Positions 4,409 to 53,430 of a stretch of 64,000 nucleotides of DNA are shown piece after piece. How positions within the stretch are numbered: position 1 is the first letter of the stretch; every line of letters begins with the position of its first letter. The stretch comes from Clavaria fumosa (taxonomy: Eukaryota > Basidiomycota > Agaricomycetes > Agaricales > Clavariaceae): positions 806,001 through 870,000 of the forward strand of contig OX637800.1 in NCBI GenBank assembly GCA_951802425.1, given 5' to 3'. Made by a program: the position numbers and the translations under genes. The notes under the pieces are model-generated. The model was not told where the DNA came from. It worked only from the letters and a program-made list of their open reading frames with translations, and searched no databases.

Positions 4409-7400
4409 TCAAAGCTTCTCTGCCTCATTGTACTTTCCCTGTGCTGAATATGTGCTTGCCAAATTGGCAGTAATTGTCAGTGTGGATGGATGCTCTGGTC
4501 CGAGCAATCTTTTTATGACTTCCATCACATGTAATTCCAGCTCCTCTGCCTCATTATACTTTCCCTGTGCTGAATATGTCCTTGCCAAATTGGCAGTAAT
4601 TGTCAGTGTGGATAGATGCTCTGGTCCAAGCAATCTTTTCATGACTTCCATCACATGTAATTCCAGCTCCTCTGCCTCATTGTACTTTCCCTGTGCTGAA
4701 TATGTCCTTGCCAAATTGGCAGTAATTGCCAGTGTGTCAGGATGCTCTGGTCCAAGCAATCTTTTCCTGGCTTCCATCACATGTAGTTCCAGCCCTTCTG
4801 CCTCATTGTACTTTCCCTGATCTGAATATGTCCTTGCCAAATTGGCAGTAATTGTCAATGTGGATGGATGCTCTGGTCCAAGCAATCTTTTACTGGCTTC
4901 CATCACATGTAATTGCAGCTCCTCTGCCTCATTGTACTTTCCCTGTGTTGAATATGTCCTTGCCAAATTGTTGGTAATTATCAGTGTGTCAGGATGCTCT
5001 GGTCCAAGCAATCTTTTCATGGCTTCCATCACATGTAATTCCAGCTCCTCTGCCTCATTGTACTTTCCCTGTGCTGAATATGTGCTTGCCAAATTGGCAT
5101 TAATTGTCAGTGTGTCATGATGCTCTGGTCCAAGCAATCTTTTCCTGGCTTCCATCACATGTAGTTCCAGCCCTTCTGCCTCATTGTACTTTCCCTGATC
5201 TGAATATGTCCTTGCCAAATTGGCAGTAATTGTCAGTGTGTCAGGATGCTCTGGTCCAAGCAATCTTTTCCTGGCTTCCATCACATGTAATTGCAGCTCC
5301 TCTGCCTCATTGTACTTTCCCTGTGTTGAATATGTCCTTGCCAAATTGGCAGTAATTGTCAGTGTGGATGGATGCTCTGGTCCAAGCAATCTTTTCATGG
5401 CTTCCATCACATGTAATTGCAGCTCCTTTGCCTCATTGTACTTTCCCTGTGTTGAATATGTCCTTGCCAAATTGTTGGTAATTGTCAGTGTGGATGGATG
5501 CTCTGGTCCAAGCAATCTTTTCATGGCTTCCATCACATGTAATTGCAGCTCCTCTGCCTCATTGTACTTTCCCTGTGCTGAATATGTCCTTGCCAAATTG
5601 TTGGTAATTGTCAGTGTGTCAGGATGCTCTGGTCCAAGCAATCTTTTCATGGCTTCCATCACATGTAATTCCAGCTCCTCTGCCTCATTGTACTTTCCCT
5701 GTGCTGAATATGTGCTTGCCAAATTGGCATTAATTGTCAGTGTGTCATGATGCTCTGGTCCAGGCAATCTTTTCCTGGCTTCCATCACATGTAGTTCCAG
5801 CCCTTCTGCCTCATTGTACTTTCCCTGATCTGAATATGTCCTTGCCAAATTGGCAGTAATTGTCAGTGTGTCAGGATGCTCTGGTCCAAGCAATCTTTTC
5901 CTGGCTTCCATCACATGTAATTCCAGCTCCTCTGCCTCATTGTACTTTCCCTGTGTTGAATATGTGCTTGCCAAATTTGCAGTAATTGTCAGTGTGGATG
6001 GATGCTCTGGTCCAAGCATTTTTTTCCTGGCTTCCATCACATGTAATTGCAGCCCCTCTGCCTCATTGTACTCTCCCTGTGCTGAATATGTGCTTGCCAA
6101 ATTGGCAGTAATTGTCAGTGTGTCAGGATGTTCTGGTCCAAGCAATATTTTCCTGGCTTCCATCACATGTAGTTCCAGCCCTTCTGCCTCATTGTACTTT
6201 CCCTGATCTGAATATGTCCTTGCCAAATTGGCAGTAATTGTCAGTGTGTCAGGATGCTCTGGTCCAAGCAATCTTTTCCTGGCTTCCATCACATGTAATT
6301 CCAGCTCCTCTGCCTCATTGTACCTTCCCTGTGCTGAATATGTGCTAGCCAAATTGGCAGTAATTGTCAGTGTGTCAGGATGTTCTGGTCCCAGCAACCT
6401 TTTCCTGGCTTCCATCACATGTAATTCCAGCTCCTCTGCTTCATTGTACTTTCCCTGTGCTGAATATGTCCTTGCCAAAATGGCAATACTTGTTAGTGTG
6501 TTTGGGTGTTCTGGCCCATGCATTCCTTTCCTAATATTCACTATGTTGACCCCCAGTTGCTCAGCCTCTTTCCAATACCCACACTCATAATAGACCCCTG
6601 AGAACTTTTCTTTCTGATCAACATTACCAATTGTACATGTTGTATTTTCCTGGTGCTTGCACATGGCAACAATGTGCTGTAGCAATGATTGCTGAAATGC
6701 AAAGGATGCACTATCCCCCCCAAATGTGATGGAGTCACACACTAGCATTTCTACTATGTTCCATGTTGGCTGCCTCTCACTGTCAGGCAACCTTCCTCGA
6801 CACCATAGATGTACCAATGGATGCATATTATATAATCTTCCAGGAGTAGTCTTCACAAGTGAAAATGATTCCAGCAATTGAATTGCTCTCCTGAATGGCA
6901 GTAAATCCCAATGCCCTTCATTGTCAACCTGTAGTATCTTGGACCAATGCACAGAATGCCTTTGGAACTCTTTCCAGTCTTGTTCAACACTGTCCTTCTC
7001 CACCATTGCTTCAGATGCATGTCTAAATATACCTTCTGGAATGTTGTCATGGTGGAGGAAGGCAAACACCTGCAACACAAGCATTGCACAAGATGCTGCT
7101 TGTGCATTATCACTCGGACATGTTGACAAAGCCCTGGCTTGAATCTCTTTAATAGAGAGTTCCCATGTCCCATAAACTGCTTGACCATAAGCAGATGCTC
7201 CTTTGAAAGAAGGATCATCCAATAACTCATGGTGATGCTTCTGATAGATCCCAAGATATTCATCAAGTTCACATAGACCACTTGCAATGCATGCACCGGC
7301 CTGATCCACAGCAAGAGGCAAGCAGCACAAAGTCTTCACAATAGGAAGGGCTGCAGCCCTCAGTTCCGCAGAAGTCACATCACAGAAGGCAGCACTCAGA

Positions 7401-8323
7401 AGGAGTGAGACTGCCTCCTGATTCCCCAACTCTCCAACTTCAGTCCAAGCTTTAGAACCAACAATCCGCCGCATGCTAGGATTACGGCTAGTGATCAGGA
7501 TGTTGCCCTGGTTATGTGTTGGCATGAACTGAAGGAGAATAGCAGGATCTCCTGCATTATCATACACTAGCAACCATTCCTGAGCGAGAAAAGATATCCA
7601 TTCGAGGACTGAATGCATCGAGTCTTGAACTCCAGATGCTTGTGCAGCCGAATCATTTGCAATGTTACGAATGGACTGCTGAGTTGTTTCAGCATTGGTC
7701 GCATCTATCCAGAAGACATGCCAGAACCTGTGGGGGTTGGTCAACAATGTAATAGCTAGACAAGACTGATGGCTCCGACGAACAGCTCTGGGTTTTTCTC
7801 AATGAATCTGAGACAAATTTGAGTCTTGCCAACACCTCCCATTCCATGAAGAAGAAAGAGCCTTCTCGAGTGCGGTTGACCTGGGCGCATACTGAAATGG
7901 GTACGCAACCTCTCGAGGTAGCCCTCACGTCCGGTGAAATTTAGGCTAAAGGGGGGCATTCGCTTGTAGGTCATATGTAAATCTTGACGCGGAGGGGTAC
8001 GGAGACCAGGTGCTGTAATACTGTGTCAGCCAAACTTGGCGGGATGCTTACTCACACTCACTTTGGTGAAGGTGAAGATGCTGGATAAAAATGTTATCAG
8101 AACCAACATTTCCACCGGCATCTGTAAGAGTCGGGGTGAGGAGACAGTGAGGCAGACAAAATTTTGAACACACATATGGTCGAATGACTGAAGTCTTGCC
8201 TCATGGGTGAGAACGACATGCTAGTAACATTATCAACGTCTGCGAGAGATAGTATACAAATGAGCTTGGCATTGATTATCTTATCATGAGAGGCTCACGG
8301 CTTGTAGCTGAAGGGTCTTCCAT
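4409..8323 (-). CDS. NB-ARC/TPR (fungal NLR-like, STAND NTPase) protein, 3'-truncated
   Basis: My model has five exons: 8323-8299, 8239-8174, 8121-8062, 8012-7784 and 7727-4409 (1232 aa), with intron phases 1,1,1,2 and introns of 49-59 nt. The start ATG at 8323 was chosen because phase and exon order match the second NLR gene exactly. NB-ARC motifs are visible: P-loop GMGGVGKTQ (about residues 107-115), Walker B LLVYDNA, ITSRNP, CCLPLAVDQAGA (GLPL-like) and MHPLVHLWC (MHD-like). From about residue 515 there are 17 TPR units of 42 aa (consensus GPEHPDTLTITANLA-TYSAQGKYNEAEELELHVMEARKRLL). In STAND proteins the nucleotide domain is a switch and the TPR array the sensor or scaffold; the ligand is unknown. 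The protein stops at NEAEKL in mid-repeat, 16 bp before an LTR, and lacks the acidic tail of its paralogue, so it is probably truncated. Confidence 0.85.
4414..6530 (-). repeat. Tandem 126-bp coding repeat (17 TPR units) with a five-unit higher-order period
   Basis: The units are near-identical at DNA level. Marker residues recur every five units: units 6-8 (SDQ, then HHDTLTINANLAS, then TNNLART) reappear as units 11-13. This indicates a roughly 630-bp segmental duplication inside the array. The complementary strand stays open over long stretches (for example 4404-4820 and 5220-5750) only because the repeat is a multiple of three; I do not call those frames genes. Confidence 0.9.
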
Positions 8324-11598: not shown

Positions 11599-13452
11599 TC
11601 AGTTTCCGACCTTAAACTCCGGTGCCAGAATCCGACAGGTGTCTGCCAGACCCTGATAGCAACTCTGCACTTTGGCGATTTGGGTACAGAGTTCTTGGTG
11701 CAGCTGATCCAAGTCTACAGCAAGCTCTTGGGCATGGACCAAAGTTACTTCACGTTTGGGGAACACTGACATATTTGGGTGATAGCCCTTGTTTGTGAAG
11801 AACGGAGAAACCCCAGTGGTGGCGCTCAGAGCATTGTTGTAGGCAAACTTTGCTAGGGGCAGGAGCTGTGACCAGTTGTCCTGCTGGTAATTGCAGTAAC
11901 AACAGAGGTATTGTTCCAATGTCTGGTTAGTCCACTCCGTCTGTCCGTCGCCCTCCGGATGATATCCAGAGGTGAAGTGTAAGGTCATGTCCAGGACTTT
12001 ACCCAACAAGTGGAAAAAATGGGAAACAAACTTGGAGCCACGATCAGAGGTGACATGTGACGGAACTCCATGTTTTGAGAAGATGTGGAATATGAACAGA
12101 TGGGCCAGCTCCACAGAGTTCACTTCATTGGTCATCGGGATGAAGATCCCCTGCTTCGTAAACCTATCAACAACCACCAATATTGCAGTAAAACCAGAGC
12201 TCTCAGGGAGTTGCTTGATGAAATCCATCGAAATGGAATTCCACAGTTTCTCAGGTATGGGCAGCTGCTCGAGTGTTCCATATGGCTTATGCCAAGGGGC
12301 TTTCACCCTACCACAAGTTGTGCAAGATTTGCAAAAGTCCAATACGAATTCTCGGAATTTCAGCCAGGTATAATCCTGGAAGACCAAGGCTGTAGTCTTG
12401 GTCCAACTGAAGTGTCCGGCAAGCGGGAGATCATGTCTCGCATGTAAAATGTGGAGTCGGAGGTCATTGATGTCTGGTACATAATTCTGTCCGCACTCGT
12501 GGAGAAGTCCATCATCATCCATGGACCACTTAGGGTCCATGGACTTTGAGCAGAGCTCTTCCAGAATCAGAGCTGTCACAGGATTGAGCAAGAGTCCAGA
12601 CCGGATGTCCTCTCGGAGTTGATGATCGTCAATCAAAAATGATGTGCGGAGTGCAGGTGCGTAAAGCGACAAAGCTCGGAGAGACAACATCGGCTGGAGG
12701 TTTTGCGGATTGATGTGGGCATAGTTGCTATCCCCCTCTTTGGGATAGACATCCCAATGTCTAGTCAACGCATTGGGTTTCATTCTGAGGCACCCCGGGT
12801 GGAATCGGATCACAAAATTGAACTGGGAAAGGAACTCCGACCACCTGGCTTGATGCCGAGTGAGCAGACAGACTGTGGAGAAGTACTCTAGGTTCTTGTG
12901 GTCGGTAACAACATCAACCAGAGTTTCAGAACCTTTGAGATAATGCCTCCAAATGGTAAACACCTTGAATATTGCGAGGAGTTCCTTATCATGAGTGTCA
13001 TAGTTCAGTTCGGACACACCAAGGGTGCAGGAATGAAACACGACAGGGTGGACTTCACTGTCAGAAGCGACTGTGGACAAGATCGCAGCGACGGCATAGT
13101 CCGAGGTGTCCATTTCGACTATCAGCGGAGCTCCAGGAATGAAGTGCAAGAGGATCGGAGCCATGGAGAACGCGGTTTTCAGATAGTTGAATGCGGACTG
13201 GCAATCACCAGACCAATGCCACTCGATGTTTTTATGTGTCAAGCAGTTCATCAGAGCAATGATCTCAGAATAACCATGGATGAAGCAGCGGTAAAAATTG
13301 GCGAACCCGAGGAAGGACTGGACATCCTTGACCTTCCGCAGAGTCGGCCAATCCTGTATAGTTTTAACTTTAGCCGTGTCCATAGAAAGTCTGGACAGAG
13401 ATAAAATGAATCTGAGGTACTCCACAGTTTCAGCATGAAATTCACACTTCAC
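11599..13452 (-). pseudogene. Chromovirus pol: end of RT, RNase H and integrase
   Basis: The 617-codon frame contains the end of RT (FLGFANFYRCFIHGYSEI), RNase H (EMDTSDYAVAAIL, DHKNLEYF) and the integrase zinc-binding motif (HDLPLAGH ... CKSCTTCGRVK). The integrase core follows with catalytic acidic positions (SMDFIKQLP, TSDRGSKF and the Glu in GQTEWTNQTLEQY). The length is normal for these domains. It is out of frame with the upstream protease/RT ORF and so is not functional as it stands. Confidence 0.9.
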
Positions 13453-14915
13453 CAGGTTCAGGAAGAGACTGTTCTTCTGGAGCCTTCAGAGTACCTCTCG
13501 GACATGCTCAATGTGTTGTTTCAGATCCTCGGAGTAAATGAGGATGTCATCAAGGTAGACAACCATGAACATGTTGAGGAGGTCAGAGAATATATCATTC
13601 ATGAAGTGCTGGAATGTGGCAGGCGCGTTTGTGAGCCTGAAGGGCATCACATACACCATTCAAAGGATCCGTAATGGGTGCAGAATGCAGTCTTCCATTC
13701 ATCACCCTTGGCAATATGGACCAGGTGATATGCATGTCAGAGGTCGAGTTTGGTGTAGATTCAGGCTTTTCCTGGAACGTCAAGAAGATCTTTAGTCAGT
13801 GGAAGTGGATAGCGGTCTTTTTTGGTCACTTTATTGAGACCACGGAAGTTGACGCAAAGTCGGAGTGTTCCATTCTTTTTCCGCACAAAAAGCACGGGTG
13901 CTCCATGTGGAGAACAGCTCAGACAGATAAATCCGATGTGGAGATGCTTGTCCAGAAACTCACAAAGTTCGCTGAGTTCAGACTGCAACAGAGAGTAGAC
14001 CGCACCTGGCAGAGGGGATTCGCCCTCCAGCAGGTTGATTTTTAGGTTGTACAGTTGGTGCAGAGCAAGGGTGTCCGCCTTCCTTTTACTGAAGATGTCC
14101 GGAAAGTCCCTATACTCCTCCGGAACAGAAAGGAGATCCTGGGAGGTGGTGTCAGGGACATTGAATGATGTGGAGGCCACACGCGCGGACTCACTCGACA
14201 ATGTCATGCCAAAGACTCGGGACCTGCAAAGTCCACAAGCCATGACAAATGCGGCTGCATTCACAAAAGAGACCTTTGGTGCCTCGGAGAAAAACGAGGC
14301 GGACAGAAAGGTCAAAGACAGAGACAGAGGTGGAGATGGAGTCCAGGCCTGGCTCAGAGTCACTGCAGATGATGTTTGAACCAGAGCACTCGGAACAGAA
14401 ACAGACAGAGGGACAGAATGGAGAGTGCTGGCCAGTGCACCCTCCGGATCAGATTTCGGAGTTTTCTCCTCATCTGTAGATGGCCTGGGCTTTATCTGGC
14501 CAGTAGTCCAGTCAACCAGCAGGTTGTTTTGGAACAGCCAATTCATTCCCAAGATCACATCACAAGAGGGATCAAGATCAGTAACTACAAGCAAAACATC
14601 AGTCGGATCCATGGCAGAAAGCCAAATGGATATCTGGACCACTTCAGTGACCCAGATGGAGGTGGTCCCATTTATGAAAACTACCTCCTGGGGAGTCACC
14701 GGAGTTTTTGGAAGATGAAGGCGAGAAGCAAATTTGGTGTTGATGAAACAGAGTTCAGCGCCAGAGTCTATCATAGTTTTAAAAGGAGATGAAATCGAAG
14801 GAGAAGTGGCAAGAAGGGAAAGAGAACGATGAAAGGAAAGGATATTGGGTATAGGTTTAGCATGATCGGAGTCAGAGCAGCCAGAGAGTCGTACTGAGCT
14901 CCCTAGGCTGCTCAA
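13453..14915 (-). pseudogene. Chromovirus protease and RT palm, broken by stops and a frameshift
   Basis: Residues near the start carry the protease signature [16 protein letters not shown]. Later the RT N-terminus is clear ([35 protein letters not shown]). Between 13453 and 13763 the palm, including [14 protein letters not shown], is present but cut by TGA codons at 13761-13763, 13737-13739 and 13486-13488, and by a frameshift near 13650. All three TGAs replace arginines that are conserved in the family (KARIYTK, LRHAYHL, VLRRLQ), which fits CGA to TGA changes. Confidence 0.85.
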
Positions 14916-14992
14916 TCTTTTTTTGACAGTGTGTCGTCTCTGTCAGAGTTGACACGGGCAGCGCTGGTGTTAGCCCGCAAACTCCGCTTATA

Positions 14993-30507: not shown

Positions 30508-33500
30508 TCATGCCACATCCTCAGACCCCACATCCAAATTATTAACAATGGATGTAGCATCAGGAAGTTCTTCTGTGGCATCATACCAGATCTCAAGCTC
30601 CTCATCTGTATCTTTATCACTGGATGCAGCACTACCTGGATGTGATTTCCTAAAGGTTGGTTCAGACATGGCTGTAGTGGCAGTGTCCATCATTAGCTGC
30701 CTTTGCATCAACAATGCCTCATAATGCTTCCCTTGAGCTGAGTAGGTGGATGCCAGAGTTGTCATGCTTGTGAGGGTGTCTGGATGCTTGGAGCCAAGCT
30801 CTCTCTTCCTTGCTTCCACAACATGAACTTGCAGCTTTTCTGCTTCATCATATTTCCCCTGGGCTGAATATGCCAATGCCAAATTGTGAATGTAAGCCAG
30901 AGTAGAAGGATGTTTTGGGCCAAACACTCTCTTCATGGCATCCATAACATAAACATGCAGCTCCTCTGCTTTATTGTGCTTCCCCTGAGCTTTATATGTT
31001 AATGCCAAAGTGTGAATGCTCATCAGAGTGGATGGATGTTCAGGACCATGCACTCTCTTCAAAGCTTCCATGACATGAACATGCAGCACCTCTGCTTCAT
31101 TGTGCTTCCCCTGAGCTTTATATGTTAAAGCCAAACTATTAATGCTTTTCAGAGTGAATGGATGTTCAGGTCCAAGCACTTTCTTCAAAGCCTCCATCAC
31201 ATGAACCTGCAGCTCCTCTGCTTCATTATGCTTGCCCTGGGCTAAATATGTGGATGCCAAATTGCTAATGCTAGACAGAGTGGATGGATGTTCAGGACCA
31301 GGCTCTCTCTTCCTTGCTTCCATGACATGGATCTGCAGCTCCTCTGCTTCATTGTACTTTGCCTGAGCTGAATATGTGGATGCCAAATTGTGAATGCTGG
31401 TCAAAGTGAATGGATGTTCTGGGCCAAGCACTCTCTTCCTAGCTTCCATGACATGAAGCTGCAGCTCCTCAGCTTCATTGTACTTCCCCTGAGCTGAGTA
31501 TGTGGATGCCAAATTCCCAATACTTGTCAAAGTGTCTGGATGTTCATGGCCAAGCACTCTCTTCCTGGCTTCCATGACATAAATCTGGAGCACCTCTACT
31601 TCATTGTGCTTCCCCTGAGCTGAATATGTGGATGCCAAACTGCTAATGCTTGACATAGTGGCTAGATGTTCAGGGCCAAGCACCCTCTTCCTTGCCTCCA
31701 GGACATGAACTTGCAACTCCTCTGCATCATTATGCTTCCCCTGAGCTGAATATGTGGATGCCAAAGTGTGAATGCTTGTCAGAGTGAATGGGTGTTCTGG
31801 GCCAAGCACTCTCTTCCTGGCCTCCATGACATGAAACTGCAACTCCTCTGCTTCATTATGCTTGCCCTGAGCTGAGTATGTGGATGCCAAATTGTGGATG
31901 CTTGTCAAAGTATCTGGATGTTCTGGGCTGAGCACTCTCTTCCTGGCTTCCATGACATGAACCTGCAGCTCCTCTGCCTCATGATGTTTCCCTTGAGCTG
32001 AATATGTTAATGCCAGATTATTAATTCCAGTCAGAGTGGATGGATGTTCTTTGCCAAGCACTCTCTTCCTGGCTTCCATGACATGAACCTGCAGCTCCTC
32101 TGCTTCATTATGCTTCCCCTGAGCTGAATATGTCAATGCACAGTTGTTAATGCTTGTCAGAGTGTTTGGGTGTTCTGGGCCAAGTATTTTCTTCCTGGCT
32201 TTCATGACATGAACCTCCAGCTCCTCTGCTTCATTATGCCTCCCTTGAGCTGAATATGTTGATGCCATATTGCCAATGCTTAGCAGGGTGTCTGCATGTT
32301 CTGGGCCAAGCACTCTCTTCCTGACTTCCATTACCTGACCTTCCAGCTCCTCTGCTTCATTGTACCTCCCTTGAGCTGAATATGTGGTTGCCAAATTGCT
32401 AATGCATCTCAGAGTAGATGGATGTTCTGGGCCAAGCACTCTCTTGTTGGCTTCCATGACATGAACCTGCAGCTTCTCTGCTTCATTGTTTTTCCCCTGA
32501 TCTGAATATGTTAATGCTAAATTGTTAATGCTTTCCAGAGTAAGTGGGTCTTCTGGTCCAAGCACCTTCCTTCTGCTTTCCACTGCACATACATAAAGCT
32601 CCTCTGCATCCTTCAAACATCCATTTTCATAGTATACTAATCCCAGTTTCTCACATCTTTCAGCATCCTCAGTTGCACACACCATCCTTTGTACATGTTT
32701 GTAAATGTTTTTGATGTGTGGTAGTAGTGATTGTCGAAAGGCATAGTCAGAGCTACCTTCTCTGTCTGTGATTGAGCAGTACAACAGAGTCTCAACAGCA
32801 TTGTATTTTGACTGTTTCTCTTCTTCAGAACATCTGTCTTGGCACCACAAATGTACCAGTGGATGCATAGAGTATAGCCTTCCAGAGCTACTGCTTTTCA
32901 GAAGTGAAAATGATGCCAATGCCTCAACTGCTTTCCTGAAAATGAAATTGTCCCAGTTGCCTGCATGACCAACTTGCAATATTTTGGACCAATCCACTGA
33001 ATCCTTGAGCAACTGTTCCCAACTACTTTTTGCATCACTCTCCTGTGTTCTACCCAATGCTATCTCTTTGGCAGCATTTCTGAACATCTCTTCTGGAATA
33101 TTTTCATGATGGAGGCAGGCAAATATTTGTAGCAGCAGAAGTGCAGTTGAAGCTGCCTGTGCCTCTCCTCTCCTATTACTTCCATGTGCCCTGGCTTCTA
33201 TCTCTGAAACTGATAGTTCCCATGTCCCATAAACTGCTTGCCCATAGTTGGATGCCCCCTTGAATGAAGGATGATCCAACAACTCTTGATGGTGCCTCTC
33301 ATACTGTTCAAGGTAATCTCCCAGATCACATAGACCACTTGCAATAGATGCACCAGCTTGGTCAATGGCTAGAGGCAAACAGCACAAGGTGGTCACAATA
33401 GAGCATGCTGCCTGCCTCAATTCATCAGCACTCTCATTGCAATGGCTAGCTCTCAGAAGGAGGGTGATTGCATCCTCCGCCCCCATCTGGTCAACTTCGG

Positions 33501-34426
33501 CCGAGCCCCGAGGATTTACTAATCCATGCATGACTGGATTCCGGCTGGTGATGAGTATGCTGCCTTGGTTGTTTGTAGGCATATACTTCTGCACAGTGCC
33601 GGGGTCACTTGCATTATCATAAACAAGCAACCACTCTTGTCTCATCCAGGACACCCACGAGAGAACCGAACGGACAGAGCTCTCAACTCCAGATGCTTGT
33701 GCAGCAGGATCATGAGCGACATCTTTGATAGACTGCTCAATTGTCTCAGGGCTGGTTGCATCAAACCAGAAGACTCGCCAGAACCTGTCCAGAATGGTGA
33801 GCAATTAAGCAACGTAGCATGATGCTGGTCAACGCACAACTTTGGGTTTTCTTCGATGAACTTGAGGCAGATTTGAGTCTTGCCAACACCTCCCATTCCA
33901 TAGAGGAGAAAGAGCCGCCTAGGGAGTGATTGTCCCTCACGCGGGCTGAAATATGTTTGGAGTTTCTCAAGGTATGACCTTTGCCCTGTGAACATTGGGC
34001 TGGGTAAGGGCATCCCTTTGAATGTGACTCGTGATTGAAACCGTGCGGAAGAGGGAGAATCAAACAGAGCTACATTGGCAGTCAGATTGAAAGTATAAAG
34101 ACTTATTAACTCAAGCTCACCTTGATGGATGTGTAGTGAACCGATGTTGAGGTTATGAGATCCAACAGCTCCACCGGCATCTATAATAAATAGTTCATTG
34201 GATATTGGGGGGAGGGATAAATTCTTAGGCTCACATATGGTTGAGAGATCAAAAGTCTGTTTCCAGGTCAGAGACTCCGGTGGTGCGCCAGTCGCACTCT
34301 CAATGTCTGCAGGAGATAGTGCTGCATGTGAGATCACACGGCTCGCATGCTCAAAGGCCACTCACTCGGTATTGTATGATCTTTGTGTAGCAAAGGTAAA
34401 TCCATGCGGCTGACATTCTGCGCCAT
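30508..34426 (-). CDS. NB-ARC/TPR (fungal NLR-like, STAND NTPase) protein, intact paralogue
   Basis: Five exons: 34426-34366, 34306-34235, 34180-34121, 34069-33838 and 33784-30508 (1233 aa), with intron phases 1,1,1,2 as in the gene at 4409-8323. The start MAQNVSRMDLPLLH is the first in-frame ATG of exon 1; 34405 is an alternative. The N-terminus shares YAGG-VGS-N---LH-HQ with the paralogue. NB-ARC motifs are complete: GMGGVGKTQ, WLLVYDNA, ITSRNP, CCLPLAIDQAGA and MHPLVHLWCQ. Fifteen 42-aa TPR units follow (consensus GPEHPDTLTSIHNLASTYSAQGKHNEAEELQVHVMEARKRVL), more diverged than in the first gene. The protein then ends in a 60-residue acidic tail (SDKDTDEELEIWYDATEELPDATS). Likely a nucleotide-switch sensor or signalling scaffold; its partner is unknown. 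The two genes lie 22 kb apart in the same orientation. Confidence 0.88.
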
Positions 34427-36332: not shown

Positions 36333-37805
36333 TTATGAATTATATCTCTTGTAGATCTTGTTAGCTTCAACCATCGCTTCTCTCTCCGATAGTCCTCCAT
36401 ACTTTTTAAGGGCATCATACAATTCCTTCGAAAGAACCGAGCGTTCGAGGCGGAGGACTTTGGCGAGGGCTTTGTGTACAGATACGACGACGGTGTTGAA
36501 CCAAGACTTGGGCGGCATCGTCCAGGGATGCTGGACGTACGAAGCGTGTATCAGCTGCTCCACTTTCTCCTTCGATTCTTCGTATTCCTTCCCGTAGACA
36601 TGCGTTTCGCCATCAGTATTCTTCTTGCCTGGATCGGCTGTGATGCAAGCGTGTCCTTGGAAAGACATGCTACTTGAGGAGAAGACCGACTCATTTTCTA
36701 CCCACCATCCATCCATATCCGTCCTAGACTCGAGTCCAGTAATGATAATGACAATGGGGACCTTCGACTGGCAGAATATTTGATGGAAGATTTCATAGTT
36801 TTTCGCAGCGGTATCCGCGATACGGGGGGAGCGCATGACGTATACAAGGAGATGAACACCATATTCCAGCTGACGAATGAGCTTGTACAGTTGTTCAATA
36901 ACACCCCGCGCTGATTGCGTATTTCGGTTGACAGTGAGTCCGGCAGTTTCGAAGAACGTGAATGGAGTGCCATAGACTCTCCTCGAGTAAGAGGTGTTGG
37001 TGAACACCGGGTTGACTGCCGCCCGATCGGAGACGGGGGCACGTTCGCCGCCCTCAAGCATGTTGATCACAGAGCCTTTCCCGCAGCCCACCTCGCCGAA
37101 AACAACGACATTGGGGACCGACTCCGTGGCGTCGCTCATCCCGAGCACTCTGGTACGGAAGTACCCCAGAGTGAGATCAAACAAAGATTGTGGTTCTATC
37201 GTCCACGGGTCCCGTCTATACGCATTGTAGATCACATTTTCCACCTTTTTCTTTGACATAGCGTATTCGTCCTCAGCACGATGCTTTCCGTCAACGAGCT
37301 TTCCCCTGCGGGCAGTGATACAAGCATGATTTGTAAACTTCATCTCGTATCGGTCGAATGTTTGCTTGTTCTCCTCCCACCAATCGTCCATATTATCCTC
37401 GTCCTCCAGACCGGTGACAATGACGACGATTGGGACTGCCTTCTGGCACAACACGGTGAAAAATATCTCGTAGTTCTTCTGCGCGATCTCCGTGATACGA
37501 GGTGCCCGCATAACGTATATGAGGAGATTCAGACTGCCCTCCAGTTGACGTAGGAGTTGAGACAATCCTTTGGAAGCTGCTCGGGCTGGGATGGCTCCTG
37601 CTGCCCCCTCGTTTAGACCAGCGGTATCGAAGACTTTAAACAAGGTGCCAGATATCGTTTTCCGGTACTGGGCGCTGGTAAAGGTCACCCCCTTTGCGCT
37701 GCTGGAGACCTCGGCTTTGTCGTTGCCTTCAAGCATATTGATGACGGAGCTTTTTCCAGCACCCGTCTCGCCAAACACGATAATATTCGGGATGGGTAGC
37801 ACCAT
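36333..37805 (-). CDS. P-loop GTPase with two tandem G domains
   Basis: A single exon. The reading frame opens at 37883, but the first plausible start is the ATG at 37805 (MVLPIPNIIVFGE), giving 490 aa; a small upstream exon is possible because a CAG acceptor-like site precedes it. Domain 1 has G1 GETGAGKSSVINM, G3 DTAGL and the family motif IVVIVTGLED. Domain 2 (from about residue 240) has GEVGCGKGSVINM, ETAGL (Asp replaced by Glu in G3) and IVIIITGLES. Only domain 2 keeps the C-terminal helical tail seen in the single-domain paralogues (SVHKALAKVLRLERS...ALKKYGGLSEREA). The canonical G4 NKxD is replaced by TGLE in the whole family. The shape suggests fusion of two tandem genes. AIG1/GIMAP-like, or more broadly TRAFAC GTPase, is the nearest group I can suggest. 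Confidence 0.8.
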   Translation of the reverse strand: MVLPIPNIIVFGETGAGKSSVINMLEGNDKAEVSSSAKGVTFTSAQYRKTISGTLFKVFDTAGLNEGAAGAIPARAASKGLSQLLRQLEGSLNLLIYVMRAPRITEIAQKNYEIFFTVLCQKAVPIVVIVTGLEDEDNMDDWWEENKQTFDRYEMKFTNHACITARRGKLVDGKHRAEDEYAMSKKKVENVIYNAYRRDPWTIEPQSLFDLTLGYFRTRVLGMSDATESVPNVVVFGEVGCGKGSVINMLEGGERAPVSDRAAVNPVFTNTSYSRRVYGTPFTFFETAGLTVNRNTQSARGVIEQLYKLIRQLEYGVHLLVYVMRSPRIADTAAKNYEIFHQIFCQSKVPIVIIITGLESRTDMDGWWVENESVFSSSSMSFQGHACITADPGKKNTDGETHVYGKEYEESKEKVEQLIHASYVQHPWTMPPKSWFNTVVVSVHKALAKVLRLERSVLSKELYDALKKYGGLSEREAMVEANKIYKRYNS

Positions 37806-38611
37806 ACTAGACCCAGATGGCGCTGAAGTCTCGCGCTGCCAGTATTGTAAGTCTTGCGGCCAAACTATATGGATACGAAACAACCTACAACGTGTGGAGG
37901 ATTCTGCTTTTCTGCTAAGCTGACCACCTCCGTCTTGGTTGGACGCTCGCTGACAGTGATGACCACAGGAAGCGAGTCAAGGACCACAATGTTCGATACA
38001 GAACGGGTGAACCAGGGCTGCATAGCATACCCTTTTCCTTGTGCCTTTTCATATCCAAGTCCGAGTCACAATTACGTCAACGAACTTGTACAACGTGCAA
38101 TAGACGCGCAGATCGGGCGCGGGGAACTGTGAGACCGCGAGGCAGATGTGATGGATCCCGTGTGTCTGCCATCAGATTGCGGCAGCCAGTGGAGCGAAGC
38201 GACTGACCCTTGCATCTGCAGCGTTGGAGTTTACAGCAGTGAGAAGGAAGGAGAATGGTATGAAAGTACTCTGCGCCAAAAACGGGCCATGTCCACAATC
38301 GATCAAGCCTCGATGAGGACGCGTGCATTGCTATCTCCGATTCATTTCTCGTTCAAAGACCATCGGTGCATCACACCTGCTGCCGTTCATATGCTCGCGC
38401 AAACGCCTCTTGATGCCTTGTTCCCCTACTTGACCGTCAAAGCCAGGACACGTGCGTATCTTCTCCCCGTAATCCACCCCCATTGCTTACTGTGCAAAAC
38501 GTACTTCATGAAGTCAAACCCGACCCCGCAGAGCGTCTTGAATCTAAATCGCTAAGGTTTAGTCACATTCTAACTCATCCGAGTATCAAACACTCACCTG
38601 CGCTCTCAGCC
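37806..38611. other. Divergent intergenic region between two GTPase genes
   Basis: About 800 bp between the minus-strand two-domain GTPase and the plus-strand GTPase starting at 38612. It probably holds both promoters. No strong motif is recognised. Confidence 0.4.
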
Positions 38612-41617: not shown

Positions 41618-42656
41618 ATGGCTGAATCTAGCTCAACGTAAGTCTACTTCCGCTGCCAGTGGTATTGTCATGTAGTAATTGCCTTTTTGCAGCGCTGTCG
41701 CGAACAAACAGGAGCCCGTGAAAGACAAGCAAACTCGAGCACGGAATGTGATCGTTTTCGGCGAGACAGGCGCTGGGAAGAGCTCTATCATCAACATGCT
41801 ACCGGGCGGAGGCAAGAGCACGGATGGAGGAAGCGCTCTTGTGTCTACTGGAGCCGCCGGAGCGACGTTCACCTCCGCGCAATACTTGAAGACGATCGAC
41901 GGGTTGACTTTCACAATATTCGACACTGCTGGCCTAAACGAGGCCGTCAAGGGGTCGGTCAAACCGTCACAGGCCATTGAACAGCTGTACAAACTCATCC
42001 ATGAGTTAGAAGACGGCATATCCCTTCTTGTTTATGTCATGCGAGCACCCCGCTTGAAGTCCACGATGAAAAAGAATTACGAAATTTTCTATGACATATT
42101 CTGTCAACGAAGTGTCCCCATTGTGATTATCATCACGGGACTGGAGGTCGTGGGCGACGTGGAGAAATGGTGGGCGAACAACGAGCAGGTCCTTCGCAAT
42201 AACGAGATGTCTTTCGACGGCCATGCTTGTATCACCGCCACTCAGGGAAGAGAGCTCCAGAGTGGAGAGCATGTGTACGACGACGAATACCGTACCTCGA
42301 AAGAAGACTTAAAAAAGTTAATCTATCAATTCCGTGATGCCACGCCGTGGACGGTGCCATCAAAGACCTGGATCGAAGACATGGTCATACGGGTCCATAT
42401 CATTCTTGCCGATTTGCTCGGGCTCGATTCCAAAGCCGCTGCACGAGACCTACGGTTTGCCCTCCAGACCTACGGTGGTTTATCAAGAAAGGAGGCGGCC
42501 AGTCGCGCCAAATCTTTGGAGAAGACAATGTCCAGACAACCGGAAACCCGTAATAGGTCAGAACTATGCTCTTTTTACTCTCATATTTGTTGATGTTCAA
42601 TCTCTAGTGCCATTCAAAGGAGTCTGAAGAGATTTCGCAACTTCACATCTACTTGA
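41618..42656 (+). CDS. P-loop GTPase, three exons
   Basis: Exons 41618-41637, 41693-42556 and 42608-42656 (310 aa). The 20-nt first exon (MAESSST, phase 2) and the intron position are shared with the GTPase at 48165-49089 and the fragment at 52291. G1 GETGAGKSSIINM, G3 DTAGL and the family motif IVIIITGLEVVGDVEKWW are intact. The tail is complete (LDSKAAARDLRFALQTYGGLSRKEA). The last exon (AIQRSLKRF...) starts with the same Ala-Ile-Gln as the last exon of the Crinkler-GTPase gene, which supports it. Without that splice the frame ends at 42593. Confidence 0.82.
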
Positions 42657-42997: not shown

Positions 42998-43846
42998 TCA
43001 ATGACATGAAGCAGTCAATCTACCCGAAGCTGGACACGATGACTTAGAGATGCTCACCTTCCCTAGAGAACTAGCAAGAGAGGCTGCCTCCCCCTTCGAC
43101 AAGCCTCCATAGGTTTGAAGGGCGAAACGCAGATCTCGGGCAGCGGTTTTAGAATCGAGGTGGAACATTTCGGCGAGAATTACGTGAACCCGTACGACCA
43201 TGTTGTCGATCCAAGTCTTCGACGACATCCTCCATGGCTCGGTATTGTGGAATTGATAAATGAGATTTTCTACTTTCCCTTTTGATGCGGCGTATTCTTG
43301 GCCGTAGACGTACTGGCCGTTTGCGAGTTGTTTTCCCAGGATGGACGTGATGCAAGCATGATTTTTGAAAGTCATCTCGTTCGTTTGAAAAGCGGGCTCA
43401 TTTTCTTTCCACCACTCCTCCATATTGTCCACTACCTCAAGTCCGGTGACGACAATCACAATCGGGACTTTTCTTTCGCAAAACACGTCGTAGAATAATT
43501 CATAGTTCTTCTTCGTGGTGGACTTCAAGCGTGGTGCTCGCATGACGTATACAAGTAGGGAAATGCCGTCGTCTCTCAGCTCATGAACGAGTTTGTATAG
43601 TTGCTCAATGGCTCGTGATGGTGGAACAGATCCATGAATGGTTTCATTAAGGCCAGCCGTGTCGAACATCGCGAAGGTCGACCCGCGTATCGTCTTGAGA
43701 TATCGTGCGGAGGCGAACGTCATTCCGACTAAATTCATGGAGACAGGAGCCTGCGTCCCGCCCTCTAGCATGTTGATGACAGAGCTTTTTCCTGCGCCTG
43801 TCTCGCCGAAGACGATCACATTCCGAACTCTGTTTTCTGCAGACAT
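42998..43846 (-). CDS. P-loop GTPase, close paralogue of the Crinkler-GTPase domain
   Basis: The ATG at 43846 gives MSAENRVRNVIVFGE (282 aa without 3' splicing). G1 GETGAGKSSVINM, G3 DTAGL and the family motif IVIVVTGLEVVDNMEEWW are intact, and the tail is LDSKTAARDLRFALQTYGGLSKGEA. A GTGAGC donor at the end of LGK suggests a short 3' intron as in the paralogues. Upstream sequence matches the linker introns and exons of the gene at 49742-51644 (GTAAGTACATTG, CTTTGCATTTTGCCC, CAACGTGAGTCCGCTTTCGTTGCGAGC), but the linker start codon and Crinkler exons are absent. The 3' flank (42870-42920) also matches that of the fusion gene (51655-51712). So this looks like a header-less sister copy. Confidence 0.78.
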   Translation of the reverse strand: MSAENRVRNVIVFGETGAGKSSVINMLEGGTQAPVSMNLVGMTFASARYLKTIRGSTFAMFDTAGLNETIHGSVPPSRAIEQLYKLVHELRDDGISLLVYVMRAPRLKSTTKKNYELFYDVFCERKVPIVIVVTGLEVVDNMEEWWKENEPAFQTNEMTFKNHACITSILGKQLANGQYVYGQEYAASKGKVENLIYQFHNTEPWRMSSKTWIDNMVVRVHVILAEMFHLDSKTAARDLRFALQTYGGLSKGEAASLASSLGKVSISKSSCPASGRLTASCH

Positions 43847-48164: not shown

Positions 48165-49089
48165 TCACCTGATGCTGTGCTCCAACCGCCTGGAAATTGT
48201 CCTCTCCAGCGACATAGCGCGAAGGGCCGCCTCCTCCTTCGACAGGCCGCCATACCTTTGGAGGGCGTAGCGCAGATCTCGGGCGGCAGCTTTAGAATCG
48301 AGGTGGAGCATTTCGGCGAGAATTACATAGACATGTATGACCATGTTGTTGATCCAGGTTTTCGACGGCATCCTCCATGGCTCGGCATCACGGAACTGAT
48401 AGATGAGGTCCTCTACCTTTCTTTTCGATGCATGGTATTCTTGCTCGTACACATGTTTCCCGGCCTGAGATAGCTTTCCCTGAGTAGAAGTGATACAAGC
48501 ATGACCTTTGAAAAGCATCTTGTTAGAGCGAAACAAGTGCTCATTTTCTGTCCACCATTCCTCCATGTTCTGTCTGTACTCCAATCCGGTGATGACAATC
48601 ACGATGGGGACTCTTCCTTCGCAAAACGAGTCCGAAAAAATCTCGTAGTTCTTCTGCGTAGTGGACTTCAAGCGGGGTGCTCGCATGACGTACATGAGGA
48701 GAGTGATACCGTCTTCTAGCTCATGAATGAGTTTGTATAGTTGTTCGATGGCTTGTGATGGCGGAACTGATCCTTGAACGGTTTCATTTAGGCCAGCCGT
48801 GTCGAATATTGTAAAACCCAACTCGCGTATCGTTTTTGGGTACCGTGCATATGCAAATGTCACTCCGGCCGCCCCATCGGATACGGTAGCATCCCCCCCG
48901 CCCTGTAGCATGTTGATGACGGAACTCTTTCCGGCACCTGTCTCGCCGAAGACGATCACATTCCGTGCTCGAGCTTGGGCATCTTCTGTAGACTCGCATT
49001 GGTTCGAAGCAGCGCTGTAAAAATGCGATTACTATATGATAATACCGCTTACAGCACAAGTTGACTCACGTTAAGCTAGATGGAGCCAT
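48165..49089 (-). CDS. P-loop GTPase, two exons
   Basis: Exons 49089-49070 and 49014-48165 (289 aa) with a 55-nt intron. The first exon MAPSSLT (phase 2) matches MAESSST of the gene at 41618. G1 GETGAGKSSVINM, G3 DTAGL and the family motif IVIVITGLEYRQNMEEWW are complete, and the tail is LDSKAAARDLRYALQRYGGLSKEEA. The 3' end after ISRRLEHSI has a GTGAGA donor-like site, so a further 3' exon is possible. Divergently placed to the Crinkler-GTPase gene, with about 650 bp between the two starts. Confidence 0.82.
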
Positions 49090-49741
49090 CGGATATTGGA
49101 CTAACGGCAAGGTGAAAGCAGGGTTTAAGCTAACGCGATTGGTGCCCAGGGAAAACGAGTCGTTTTTGGTGTGAAAGAATCGGGACGCCAGGCGCAGTTC
49201 GGCCGCTTGATGCGAGCGTGAATTTAACGATTTTCGAGCTTAAAGCACAAATTTTCTGTAGTGGTACACAAGTTAGTCATTTCACATTTGCTTCCCGGAC
49301 TAGCTCACAGAGACGCCACCACATGCAAAAAATGTGGCTTCCATGGGCCAGGGTCCAAATCAATAAAGCACATTGATACGAGCAGCGATGTCTACAGTCA
49401 AGCCTCGCGGCCTTGTGCCCTCACCCGCATGAACCAGCGTGATGCCTCATTTTCACGCGGCCTCATTGCGGGCAAAGTCCCTTGGAATCGCATGCAAGGA
49501 TGGCTTGCAAGATGTTGACTTTGAACGGTAGCCTGTGTTCTGGTGGCGAAAGGGAAGAATCGCAAAGCTTCTGCAAAATGCACAGTCGATTTTCCAATGG
49601 TAATAACGCATATTTTCATACTGCATTGGGTGTGGATAGGATCACAAAACTCCTTCCTGTGTACCCCTTTCTGTGTATAATTGCTGCATCGAATGGACGC
49701 CTCCAAATCTAACACATTCCGGTCCAACTGCACCGTCTATC
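49090..49741. promoter_or_regulatory. Shared divergent upstream region of two GTPase genes
   Basis: About 650 bp separate the minus-strand GTPase and the plus-strand Crinkler-GTPase gene. It contains CCACAT-N7-ATGTGG (49319-49337). The half 49262-49600 is duplicated in direct orientation at 52440-52770, and the half 49110-49220 is duplicated in inverted orientation at 52130-52260. It probably serves as a bidirectional promoter. Confidence 0.55.
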
Positions 49742-51644
49742 ATGTCCAATTCTGCGCACAATCCTGGATTTCGCCTGTGGTGTCTCGTTGACGGGGAGTC
49801 TACGCCATTCAAAGTTGCGCCGCCTGCCAACGCCGATGTTGACGATTTGAAGGATTTCATCAGGGAGAAGAGAGTTGACATTCCCGCAAAGGATCTAGTG
49901 CTTTGGAAGGTGAGTCATTGATATAAACTCTAAACGCCAACACTCATTCCTCTGTGGTAGCCCAAACAATCTATACTTCTTAAACCATCACGCACTCTTG
50001 CCCAACGCATCCATCTACCTAGCGTCAAGTTATCAGACATTGCCGATGAGCTAGACGAGCCCTCAGAAAATGTCTCGGCTATCTTCTCAGAAAGCCTTGA
50101 AGGTTGTCTCCACATCATCGTGAGGGTACCCACCAGTGAGTGCGAATGGCTTGTCTTTCGTGCGTATGAGCAGAACTGACGTTATCGCCTCGTCTCGCTC
50201 GCCAACTTATTCATCGAATGATACTCCGTGTTCTCGCTTCATCCATCCGCCCTTTGCGGCCTCGCCTTTCATTTACCGACCCCGCCTCTCATTATCGCCT
50301 CATGTCTCCTTTTTTGGTTATTCCTCTTCGCCTGCATTATCTCACTTTTCGCTGCCGTTTTGCCTCGCTGTGGCCTCCCATCTTTCCCTCGTTTACACCT
50401 CATTGTCGCGTCGTGTTTCCTTTCCTCCACTCATCGTTAACGTTTTGCAGCCCCCTCTTCCCCACCAGAAAATGGCACCGATCGCTCGCGTAAGTATGTT
50501 GATCTCTCCGCTTTTGCCACCAACCCAACGCTCTTTGCATTTTGCCCCCTTTAGTCAGTCAACCTCCCACGTCCTCGATCAGTACGCCTGCTTCAACGTG
50601 CGTCCGCTTTCGTTGCGAGCCATGTTGTCATAAAGGAACTACATCTTTGTAGCACCGCATCGATTCGAGACGAGCCAGCCAACAACATCCAGGATCGAGT
50701 ACGGAATGTGATCGTCTTCGGCGAAACAGGCGCAGGAAAAAGCTCCGTCATCAACATGTTACACGGCGGAGAGGAGGCTCCTATCTCCATGAATTTGACC
50801 GGGGAGACGTTCGCTTCCGCACGATATCTTAAGACGATACGCGGGTCAACTTTCACAATATTCGACACGGCTGGCCTCAACGATACCGTTCATGCACTAG
50901 TTCCGCCACCACAAGCCATTGGACAACTTTACAAACTCATTCATGCACTGAAAGACAACGGTGTTTCCCTGCTTGTATACGTCATGCGAGCACCACGCTT
51001 GAAGTCTACCGCGCAGAAGAACTATGAATTGTTCTGGGACATATTTTGTGAGGGAAAAGTCCCAATTGTGATTATCGTCACCGGTCTGGAGGTTGTGGAC
51101 AACATGGAGGAGTGGTTGGAAGAAAACAAGGCTGACTTTCACCGTCACAACATGTTTTTCAAAGGTCATGCTTGCATCACGTCCATCAAGGGAAAAAAAC
51201 TCGGAAACGGCCGGCACGTCTACGAACAAGAATACCTCACATCGAAGAAAAAGGTAGAGGACCTCATCTATCAGTTCCGCGATACCGAGCCATGGAGGAT
51301 GCCATCGAAGACTTGGATTGACAAAATGGTCGCACGGGTTTACGTGTTTCTCGCCGAAACGCTCAACCTCGATTCCAAAATTGCTGCCCGAGATCTGCGT
51401 GTTGCCCTTCAAACCTACGGAGGCTTGTCGAAGCCAGAGGCGGCTTCTCTTGCAGATTCTCTGGAGAGGGTAAGCATCCTGGGTCACTTTGTTCAGCACC
51501 AGGTAGACTGACTGCTTCATGTTATTTATTCGCTCTGGTTTTTGTTGATGGTCGATTCCTAAGGCCATACAGGAGGTTCGGCATTTGAGCCAGGCTGTCC
51601 CGAGCGGTGCAACTTTGCAAGAGGGGCCACAATCTTTGCAGTAG
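49742..51644 (+). CDS. Crinkler (CRN) N-terminal header fused to a P-loop GTPase
   Basis: Six-exon model: 49742-49909, 49961-50135, 50451-50489, 50555-50597, 50653-51469 and 51564-51644 (440 aa). Exons 1-2 encode a Crinkler header (residues 1-114: FRLWCLVDGESTPFKV, DVDDLKDFIREKR, DLVLWK, LSDIADELDEPSENVSAIFSE, CLHIIVRVP). The first intron follows LWK. Exons 3-4 give a Ser/Pro/Thr linker (PSSPPENGTDRSLSQPPTSS). Exon 5 is the GTPase: GETGAGKSSVINM, DTAGL, IVIIVTGLEVVDNMEEWL and the LDSKIAARDLRVALQTYGGLSK tail. All five junctions are GT-AG and stay in phase. Crinkler headers are ubiquitin-like and occur on effector-like proteins of oomycetes and fungi with varied C-terminal domains. The 315-nt third intron is longer than the rest. 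If it were not spliced, a GTPase could start at 50472 using a GTATGT donor, so transcript evidence would decide. Confidence 0.75.
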
Positions 51645-52007
51645 TCAGTGCTCCGTGTACGCACTCCCTTTGTAAATCTGAACTGGTCATGCCACACGAG
51701 ATGCATCCCTTCCTTGGAAAAAATCAAACAAAATTTGTACCATTGTCAAGTGTTGTGCAATGCATGACTTGAGAGTGCGCAATACTGGTGCGTATCTCGT
51801 ATGAATATCATGGGCAGTTTGTGATGACTATTGCTAGGGCTTGTGCAACCACCCCGAGAGCTTGAGATCGCGAAAATTTACCAGCCAGATCAACAGCAGT
51901 CAGCTTTATGACTCACGTGTCGTGACCAGTTGTAGTAAAAGCGCTGGTTGGCCCATGACATCATTGAATGTGACGTGCTTACCTATGATATGAAACAGCC
52001 ACTTTGC
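51645..52007. other. 3' flank of the Crinkler-GTPase gene
   Basis: 51655-51712 matches the complement of 42870-42920, the 3' flank of the sister GTPase at 42998-43846. The rest shows no gene. Confidence 0.5.
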
Positions 52008-52115
52008 CAACTCGCGTATCGTCTTTATAGGTATCATGCGTATGCAAATGTCACTCCGGCCGCCCCATCGGATACAGCAGCATCCCCTCCGCCCTGTAGC
52101 ATGTCGATCAGAAAA
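52008..52115 (-). pseudogene. GTPase gene fragment (internal piece)
   Basis: About 100 bp match 48815-48915 of the neighbouring GTPase gene, coding for the segment between G1 and G3 (complement of CTCCGGCCGCCCCATCGGAT). Flanks on both sides differ, so it is a translocated scrap. Confidence 0.75.
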
Positions 52116-52290
52116 AATGTGCTCAGAGCTTGAAAATCGTTGCGGTAAATTCCTTGCGCTCACATCAAGCTGCCAAACGCTGCGCCTGGCGTCCCGATTT
52201 TTTCACACCGAAAACGACTCGTTTTCCCCGGGCACCAATCATCCCTTTCACGTCACGGCCCTCGCAGTTAGTCCAACCCCGACGTATTTG

Positions 52291-52446
52291 ATGGCTCCAT
52301 CTAGCCCAACGTGAGTCCACTTGCGCTGTAAGCGGTATTGACGTACAACAATCGCATTCTTGCAGCGCTGCTTCGAACCAACGCGAGTCTACAAAAGATG
52401 CGCAAGCTCGAGTACGGAATGTAATCGTCTTCGGAGAGACAAGTTA
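52291..52446 (+). pseudogene. Truncated 5' end of a GTPase gene
   Basis: Exon 1 MAPSSPT (52291-52310) has a GTGAGT donor. A CAG acceptor at 52364-52366 leads to exon 2, AASNQRESTKDAQARVRNVIVFGET, in the same phase as the genes at 41618 and 49089. At 52440 the sequence passes, through the shared bases ACAAGTTAGTC, into a copy of the 49262-49600 intergenic block and hits a stop just inside the P-loop. Promoter-like sequence upstream (52130-52290) is intact. Confidence 0.8.
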
Positions 52447-52770
52447 GTCATTTCACATTTACTTCCCGGACTGGCTCACAGAGATCCCACCACATGCAAA
52501 AACTGTGGCTTCCATGGGCCAGGGTCCAAATCGATAAAACCACATTGATACGAGCAGGGACGCTGTTGCCACTCGCGGTCTTTGCCCTCACCTGCACGAA
52601 CCACCTCATTTCCACGCGGCCTCATTGCGTGCAATATCCCTTGGAATCGCGTGTAGGGATGGCTTGCAAGATGTCGACGTAGCCTTTGTTCTGGTGGCGA
52701 AAGGGCAGAAAGCTTCTGCAAAATGCACAGTCATTGAGTCAGTCAATCGTCCAAACGAAACGCATATTTT
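52440..52770. repeat. Duplicate of intergenic block 49262-49600
   Basis: Sequence from AGTTAGTCATTTCACATTTRCTTCCCGGACT onwards matches 49270-49600 with scattered changes and small deletions, including CCACATGCAAAAACTGTGG. It abuts the truncated GTPase fragment. Confidence 0.8.
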
Positions 52771-53430
52771 CATACTGTATAGGATCGGTTAACTCGTTCA
52801 GTTTGCAAACAGCTGTAAACAACCAGCTTCCTCTTGCCCTCCTTTTTCTGTCTCATCAACGGTTTACGAGTGGCCGAGGAGAATCCATTTGTATCTACTC
52901 ATGGCATACCTCCCTGTTTGCTGATTCGATGCCACATATATCGACCAACACCGTATCCATGATGCGCTTTGCGACGTTGTGCAAGTCCTCTTGTCGTAGC
53001 TCACGTTGCGCTTGACAGCATTGTCACATTGTGCATCGAATGGGCTACAGGTCGTTTTCGATGGTTCCTGCATCAGACAGGACGAATGGCAGCTTCAGAA
53101 GTAGAGCCGCCGCCGCATGTCAGACGCTTAACTCACGTGGAAGAGCGGGCGAGGCTACAAAGCCGCTGAGATAATCGTCGGACCCTGAACCACAAGGAGG
53201 GCGGACCTTTCACCCCTGATGTGCGGCGGTCCTTGACCGGTCTGACCGGTTAACCAAATGATCGATCAGGTTGCGATTGTGGCGCAAAAAGGTGCCGCGA
53301 TGTCTCCGCTCCACCACGTTTCTCTCCATTCAAAAACGGAGAATATACCCCGGCTGATGCCAAGATATGTTGGTGGGGTGATGATCTCAGATTGGATCTG
53401 AATGAATGTTTATAAACATCGGTAAAAATG
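52771..53430. other. Intergenic region, no gene recognised
   Basis: Short frames only. CTGACCGGTCTGACCGG-like short repeats occur near 53232-53250. Confidence 0.35.

What the first reader, a model, noticed from the sequence alone, without database searches (positions are those of the whole stretch)
49742..51644. A Crinkler header spliced in phase to a P-loop GTPase
Seen: two exons encode a Crinkler-type N-terminal domain ending in LHIIVRVP. Canonical splice sites then lead through a 39-nt and a 43-nt linker exon into a complete GTPase domain, and reading phase holds at all five junctions. Known: CRN headers are modular and usually carry other C-terminal effector domains. Inferred: one member of a local GTPase family has acquired, or the others have lost, an effector-type header. 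The sister GTPase at 42998-43846 keeps remnants of the same linker introns but not the header, so the change happened within this cluster.
Basis: partly seen in the sequence, partly recalled or inferred. Interest (0 to 1): 0.87.

Follow-up and report, generated by a model that had tools for sequence, protein, structure and literature searches.

The report
Crinkler header spliced onto GIMAP-like GTPase
In a mushroom-type fungus, one gene of a GTPase cluster very probably starts with a Crinkler 'header' domain joined through an unusual intron, and that intron may show how such headers get attached to new proteins.

Summary
In detail: two exons encode a PF20147 Crinkler header, and five in-phase junctions with canonical splice signals lead through 39-nt and 43-nt exons into an intact GIMAP/AIG1-like GTPase. 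No RNA was available. The fusion is the best reading. With introns 3 and 4 spliced, the GTPase has no usable start of its own; the ATG at 50472 reaches its frame only if intron 4 is retained. Thirteen of 20 fetched header regions of the same genome (about eight distinct sequences) carry the same phase-1 donor directly after H[IV]IVxxP, the counterpart of the oomycete HVLVxxP recombination hotspot. The 315-nt intron belongs to the header cassette: its start is shared with header paralogs, and a branch-point-like ACTGAC at +39 is followed by a stretch free of AG up to the acceptor. Seven of 12 measured paralog introns have AG-free stretches of 409-792 nt. Homology with the sister GTPase begins at 50456, beside that first AG. 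So the header probably joined a GTPase gene within an intron and captured its former leader. 'Header plus GTPase' is already listed for CR proteins; the GIMAP-like pairing and the AG-free intron were not seen in the literature listings searched here.

The parts
49742..49909 (+). exon 1, first half of Crinkler header
   Evidence: PF20147 E 4.2e-9; donor GTGAGT
49910..49960 (+). intron 1, 51 nt, phase 0
   Evidence: aligned intron in header paralogs
49961..50135 (+). exon 2, second half of header ending HIIVRVPT
   Evidence: six-frame PF20147 match reaches profile 106; aligned exon in paralogs; no Pfam match alone
50136..50450 (+). intron 2, 315 nt, phase 1; conserved start, ACTGAC at 50175-50180, AG-free 50174-50448
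50451..50489 (+). exon 3, 39-nt linker, phase 1 in and out
   Evidence: homologous DNA in 43-kb sister from 50456
50490..50554 (+). intron 3, 65 nt
   Evidence: GTAAGT donor shared with sister
50555..50597 (+). exon 4, 43-nt linker; its 3' end equals the ATG-bearing first exon of the 48-kb and 41-kb GTPases, ATG absent here
50598..50652 (+). intron 4, 55 nt, phase 2, the GTPase family's own intron
50653..51469 (+). exon 5, GIMAP/AIG1-like GTPase domain
51573..51644 (+). last exon and stop codon
   Evidence: reading; acceptor one of those listed
42998..43846 (-). closest GTPase paralog, no header
   Evidence: 75% protein identity; tree partner 86/98
48165..49028 (-). GTPase paralog whose own ATG exon lies upstream (ATG at 49087-49089)

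Best explanation
One gene encodes a Crinkler (ubiquitin-clan) header joined through an S/T/P-rich linker to a GIMAP/AIG1-like GTPase. It arose when a header cassette (two exons plus the 5' part of its phase-1 intron) came to lie upstream of a GTPase gene. Splicing then ran from the cassette's donor and donor-proximal branch point across an AG-free pyrimidine tract to the first AG, at 50449-50450, at the edge of the GTPase gene's former leader. The leader became linker exons and the GTPase lost its own start. Shown by sequence: exons, phases, shared donor and intron start, AG-free tract, homology boundary. Inferred: that splicing happens, that the branch point is the distal one, and that the header gives localisation or partner binding to a nucleotide-switch GTPase, most likely in intracellular conflict or self/non-self responses rather than as a proven injected effector.
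For: Phases fit at all junctions. With introns 3 and 4 both spliced, no ATG between 50136 and the P-loop reaches the GTPase frame. The same phase-1 donor after H[IV]IVxxP lies in 13 of 20 header regions (counted by me; about eight distinct sequences). In six of the 13 aligned rows (L048, L049, L053, L054, L060, L061) the first 42-43 nt of the intron differ at 7-8 places (17-19%), against 44-50% in exon 2; these segments ended where BLAST matches end, which flatters them, and L052 (24/42), L055 (48/106), L062 and L063 (57 and 56 of 137) are less alike. Intron homology reaches 50246-50273. A 67-nt intron start finds 15 places in the genome, 14 behind PF20147 matches and the 15th behind a degenerate header seen by eye (the focal copy is too diverged to be among them). 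AG-free tract 268 nt after the branch-like site, 4.3 AG expected, 3 GA seen; shuffle P 0.0035. Paralog tracts of 409, 429 (three copies), 502, 707 and 792 nt. The first AG in phase 1 opens about 410 codons in L052, L060 and L061, which share that exon. GTPase-side homology begins at 50456. Codon-level constraint.
Against: No RNA. For the focal intron alone the AG gap is modest (Poisson about 0.013), and the window holds an AG-free run of 274 nt that is no header intron (2424-2697). TTAAC lies at 50437-50441, so a proximal branch point is possible. First-AG splicing leaves only 3-5 open codons in 4 of 12 measured paralog introns (L048, L049, L053, L054), and L062 opens far only at its second AG. 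L052 lacks the branch-like site. L055's 316 open codons run through pyrimidine-rich, stop-poor sequence and prove little. 0 of 120 listed GTPase relatives carry PF20147, so the fusion has no independent witness.
Confidence: 0.72

Rival explanations
1. Two neighbouring genes: a header-only gene ending about 15 codons into intron 2, and a GTPase gene starting at ATG 50472 (or 50166, same frame) with intron 3 spliced and intron 4 retained.
For: Both ATGs are open into the GTPase under that splicing; pyrimidine-rich tracts also occur before fungal start sites (recalled).
Against: Intron 4 must be spliced in the 48-kb and 41-kb paralogs if they start at their ATG, since retention stops at once (reading). 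The sister lacks ATG 50472. The start of the pyrimidine tract is that of header introns.
Confidence: 0.17
2. Old fusion: the header was present in the common ancestor of the focal gene and the 43-kb sister, and the sister lost it.
For: Both lack the exon-4 ATG and share the exon 3 region; they group at 86/98, below the tool's star level.
Against: No detectable header or intron 2 upstream of the sister (shuffle P 0.45 and 0.87); the exon 3 regions differ by frame-breaking gaps.
Confidence: 0.25
3. The fused gene is a non-functional by-product of local rearrangement.
For: The locus is rearranged: duplicated and inverted pieces flank it.
Against: All exons are open, splice sites intact, pairwise dN/dS below 1 in both parts (pairwise values cannot isolate the focal branch).
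Confidence: 0.12

Closest known systems
Crinkler-RHS (CR/CRN) proteins of oomycetes and fungi (Zhang et al. 2016, seen only through PMC5289972)
   Same: PF20147 header, HVLVxxP-like end, swapped C-terminal domains; GTPase domains are listed among CR C-termini
   Different: Here the swap point is a phase-1 intron with an AG-free tail; the C-terminus is GIMAP-like, with no REase or kinase match in the GTPase exon
AIG1/GIMAP and Toc34 GTPases
   Different: G4 position reads TGLE in 44 of 44 rows of A2 and 25 of 28 of A1 instead of the usual N/TKxD (recalled); 13% identity
Fungal NLRs with an N-terminal Crinkler domain (PMC9815663)
   Same: Same header family at the N-terminus of other fungal proteins that bind NTP
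   Different: No NACHT or NB-ARC match and no repeats; a small G domain instead
Human distant-branch-point exons with AG exclusion zones (Gooding et al. 2006, PMC1431707, passages only)
   Same: Consensus branch site at the 5' end of a long AG-free, pyrimidine-rich stretch ending at the acceptor
   Different: Fungal, repeated across one gene family, and placed at a domain-swap site; no experiment here

Membership tests
Crinkler/CR protein | PF20147 header above cut-off | tested here: met
   37.6 bits exon 1 alone, 51.4 bits over the locus, cut-off 24.6
Crinkler/CR protein | Header ends in HVLVxxP-like motif at the swap point | tested here: met
   HIIVRVP followed by the phase-1 donor; motif from PMC5289972 section 5
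Crinkler/CR protein | Known CR C-terminal domain (REase, kinase, NTPase, GTPase) | tested here: inconclusive
   GTPase present; the review names GTPase domains but not which kind; the original paper is not held
Crinkler/CR protein | Secretion or translocation | not testable with these tools
   needs cells
AIG1/GIMAP GTPase | AIG1 profile above cut-off | tested here: met
   28.1 vs 27 bits, so barely
AIG1/GIMAP GTPase | GIMAP-like fold | tested here: met
   model pLDDT 85.5; GIMAP chains lead both lists
AIG1/GIMAP GTPase | Canonical guanine-binding G4 motif (recalled) | tested here: not met
   T-G-L-E in 44 of 44 rows; filed as GIMAP-like, not as a GIMAP
Fungal NLR | NACHT/NB-ARC plus repeats | tested here: not met
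   Pfam scan of exons 1, 2 and 5 shows Crinkler, G-domain families and weak P-loop matches only
AG-exclusion / distant branch point intron | AG-free stretch over 100 nt with branch-site consensus at its 5' end | tested here: met
   268 nt after ACTGAC
AG-exclusion / distant branch point intron | Branch point mapped | not testable with these tools
   needs RNA

The most novel reading that the evidence does not exclude
Crinkler headers in this fungus spread as splice traps: a mobile cassette of two exons, a phase-1 donor, a donor-proximal branch point and a selected AG-free tail that takes the first AG of whatever gene lies downstream. This would turn the HVLVxxP recombination hotspot into an intron-borne exon-capture device; the GTPase fusion is one recent capture.
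Probability: 0.35. Interest if true: 0.8.

Novelty: new variant of a known kind. Interest (0 to 1): 0.55.

Why it matters
How Crinkler headers acquire so many different C-terminal domains is an open question. Here the join is visible: header side, intron and GTPase side can be told apart to within about 180 nt (50273-50456), next to header-free sister genes. If the AG-free intron is confirmed, it gives a simple and testable route for exon shuffling in fungi and a way to find further header fusions that exon-by-exon annotation misses.

Tried and rejected
Rejected: that intron 2 is simply the GTPase promoter (its first 50 or so nt are the conserved header-intron start); that exon 3 is a header-type linker exon like that of L055 (alignment score at shuffle level); that another header gene here carries a GTPase (49 header matches against 26 MMR_HSR1, 11 AIG1 and 23 own-family matches, coordinates compared by eye: only the focal one is adjacent; lists are lower bounds, and the nearest other case is the degenerate header C1:1345949, 3.7 kb from a G-domain match on the other strand).

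Led nowhere: Rfam (0 matches); Zhang et al. 2016 not held; species name (best named RPB2 hits Marasmius sp. 93%, Agrocybe pediades 93%, Mycena chlorophos 92%, so an Agaricales-type fungus of unknown lifestyle). Four of six C2 rows of the first tree were read on the wrong strand; all were redone. The L056/L057 rows start from a donor position that I set wrongly and are dropped. The 20 regions cover 24 of 49 header matches.

Literature: PMC5289972 (passages, sections 5 and 11), PMC9815663 (passages, section 10) and PMC1431707 (passages); all others only as search listings. 'Not seen' rests on those listings: of the 15 papers shown (of 29) none held both 'AG exclusion zone' and 'basidiomycet'; of the 20 shown (of 26) none shows a header-GIMAP pairing in title or abstract start.

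Full report
What is there. The window is part of an Agaricales-type fungal genome (48.8 Mb, 17 contigs; RPB2 exon 92-93% identical to Marasmius sp., Agrocybe pediades and Mycena chlorophos). At 49742-51644 the + strand carries six predicted exons. Exon 1 matches the Crinkler header PF20147 (37.6 bits, cut-off 24.6); exon 2 matches nothing alone but completes the six-frame match (51.4 bits). Exon 5 is a G domain matching MMR_HSR1 and, barely, AIG1. Exon lengths 168, 175, 39 and 43 leave phases 0, 1, 1 and 2, and the GTPase frame needs exactly phase 2 at 50653.

Is it one gene? Three lines say yes. First, the GTPase has no start of its own: with introns 3 and 4 spliced, no ATG between 50136 and the P-loop reaches its frame; ATG 50472 runs into a stop at 50709. 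ATGs 50472 and 50166 are open only if intron 3 is spliced and intron 4 is kept. The 48-kb and 41-kb paralogs begin with an ATG in the exon that corresponds to exon 4 and, if they start there, must splice the same phase-2 intron; in the focal gene that ATG is gone. Second, the donor that ends the header is the standard one: in 13 of 20 fetched header regions, about eight distinct sequences, a phase-1 donor follows H[IV]IVxxP (counted by me). Of the other seven, L044 has a one-exon header and the rest have different, truncated or unrecognised ends. Third, both halves show codon constraint: header dN/dS 0.24-0.57 against 13 paralog segments, GTPase 0.36 against the sister. Third-position excess is seen in most comparisons but not in exon 2 of L062, L063 and L056.

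The intron. In six of 13 aligned rows the first 42-43 nt of the header intron differ from the focal gene at only 7-8 places (17-19%), fewer in proportion than exon 1 (27-35%) or exon 2 (44-50%) of the same rows; L047a (13/58) and L056 (11/50) are close to this, while L052 (24/42) and the longer segments of L055, L062 and L063 (41-45%) are not. The segments end where BLAST matches end, which flatters short ones. A 67-nt probe finds 15 places in the genome: 14 behind a PF20147 match, one behind a degenerate header seen by eye. Homology with the focal intron runs to 50246 (L055) and 50273 (L062, L063). Each of the 12 measured paralog introns except L052 carries a branch-site-like ACTGAC, ACTAAC, GCTGAC or GTTGAC at +31 to +39. 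In L060 and L061 the acceptor follows 19 nt later, giving an ordinary 58-nt intron. In the others a stretch without any AG follows: 268 nt in the focal gene; 409, 429 (three near-identical copies), 502, 707 and 792 nt in seven paralog introns; about 179, 84 and 80 in three more. In focal, L047b, L048, L055 and L063 together, base composition predicts about 44 AG and about 44 GA; 0 AG and 38 GA are seen (sums). L055 and L063 share sequence, so they are not fully independent, and a run that ends at the first AG is AG-free by definition, so the test is one of run length. The focal run (275 nt) is the longest in the window on either strand, but a 274-nt run elsewhere is no header intron. Splicing to the first AG in phase 1 opens 408, 410 and 409 codons in L052, L060 and L061 (one shared exon), 80 into a second header in L047a, 58 in L047b, 41 in L063 and 20 in L062 (205 with its second AG). 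L055 gives 316, but through stop-poor pyrimidine sequence. L048, L049, L053 and L054 give only 3-5, which does not fit. In the focal gene the first AG is the acceptor at 50450.

The GTPase side. The only other match in the genome for 50136-50656 is the 43-kb sister, from 50456 on, 78% identical through the gene. Focal and sister group at 86/98 in the tree of 15 domains (below the tool's star level). In 600 nt upstream of its homologous part the sister shows no detectable header or intron 2. The junction therefore lies between 50273 and 50456, in the intron or at its end. This is what intronic recombination predicts. Gain in the focal gene is simplest; gain before the split and later loss in the sister is not excluded.

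Novelty. GTPase domains are already listed among CR C-termini (PMC5289972), and the HVLVxxP hotspot is known. A GIMAP-like partner, the phase-1 intron at that hotspot and its AG-free tail were not seen in the listings searched. Of 120 listed GTPase relatives none carries PF20147 (514 matched, 120 shown).

Noticed in passing
52007-52783: Piece of a GTPase 5' end plus intergenic sequence duplicated from 48818-49629, partly inverted, flanking the focal gene on the other side.
   Followed up: partly
L063 1710-2120 (oriented) and L055 1510-1550: A 39-48 nt linker exon with a basic PKRPR stretch is repeated in tandem together with its own AG-free intron.
   Followed up: partly
L047: Two headers in tandem; the first AG behind the first header's donor opens in phase into the second header.
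   Followed up: no
G000 C1:115797, C4:4479402, C5:64418, C11:2679755, C12:67171: Five header loci with identical scores, 64-221 kb from contig ends, as if subtelomeric copies.
   Followed up: no
P0011 (database protein) vs window 42998-43846 and 41679-42593: A public protein looks like the 43-kb GTPase in its first half and the 41-kb GTPase in its second half, starting at the sister's MSAEN: gene conversion, deletion fusion or misassembly.
   Followed up: no
4409-7798 and 30508-33804, - strand: Two long open frames with many near-identical TPR-like repeats, which look like NLR-type genes (by eye; not scanned).
   Followed up: no
656-3686 and 11599-14942, - strand: Retroelement-like reverse transcriptase and integrase frames (by eye).
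   Followed up: no
36333-37976, - strand: Tandem double GTPase in one frame; relatives of about double length lead the database hits.
   Followed up: partly
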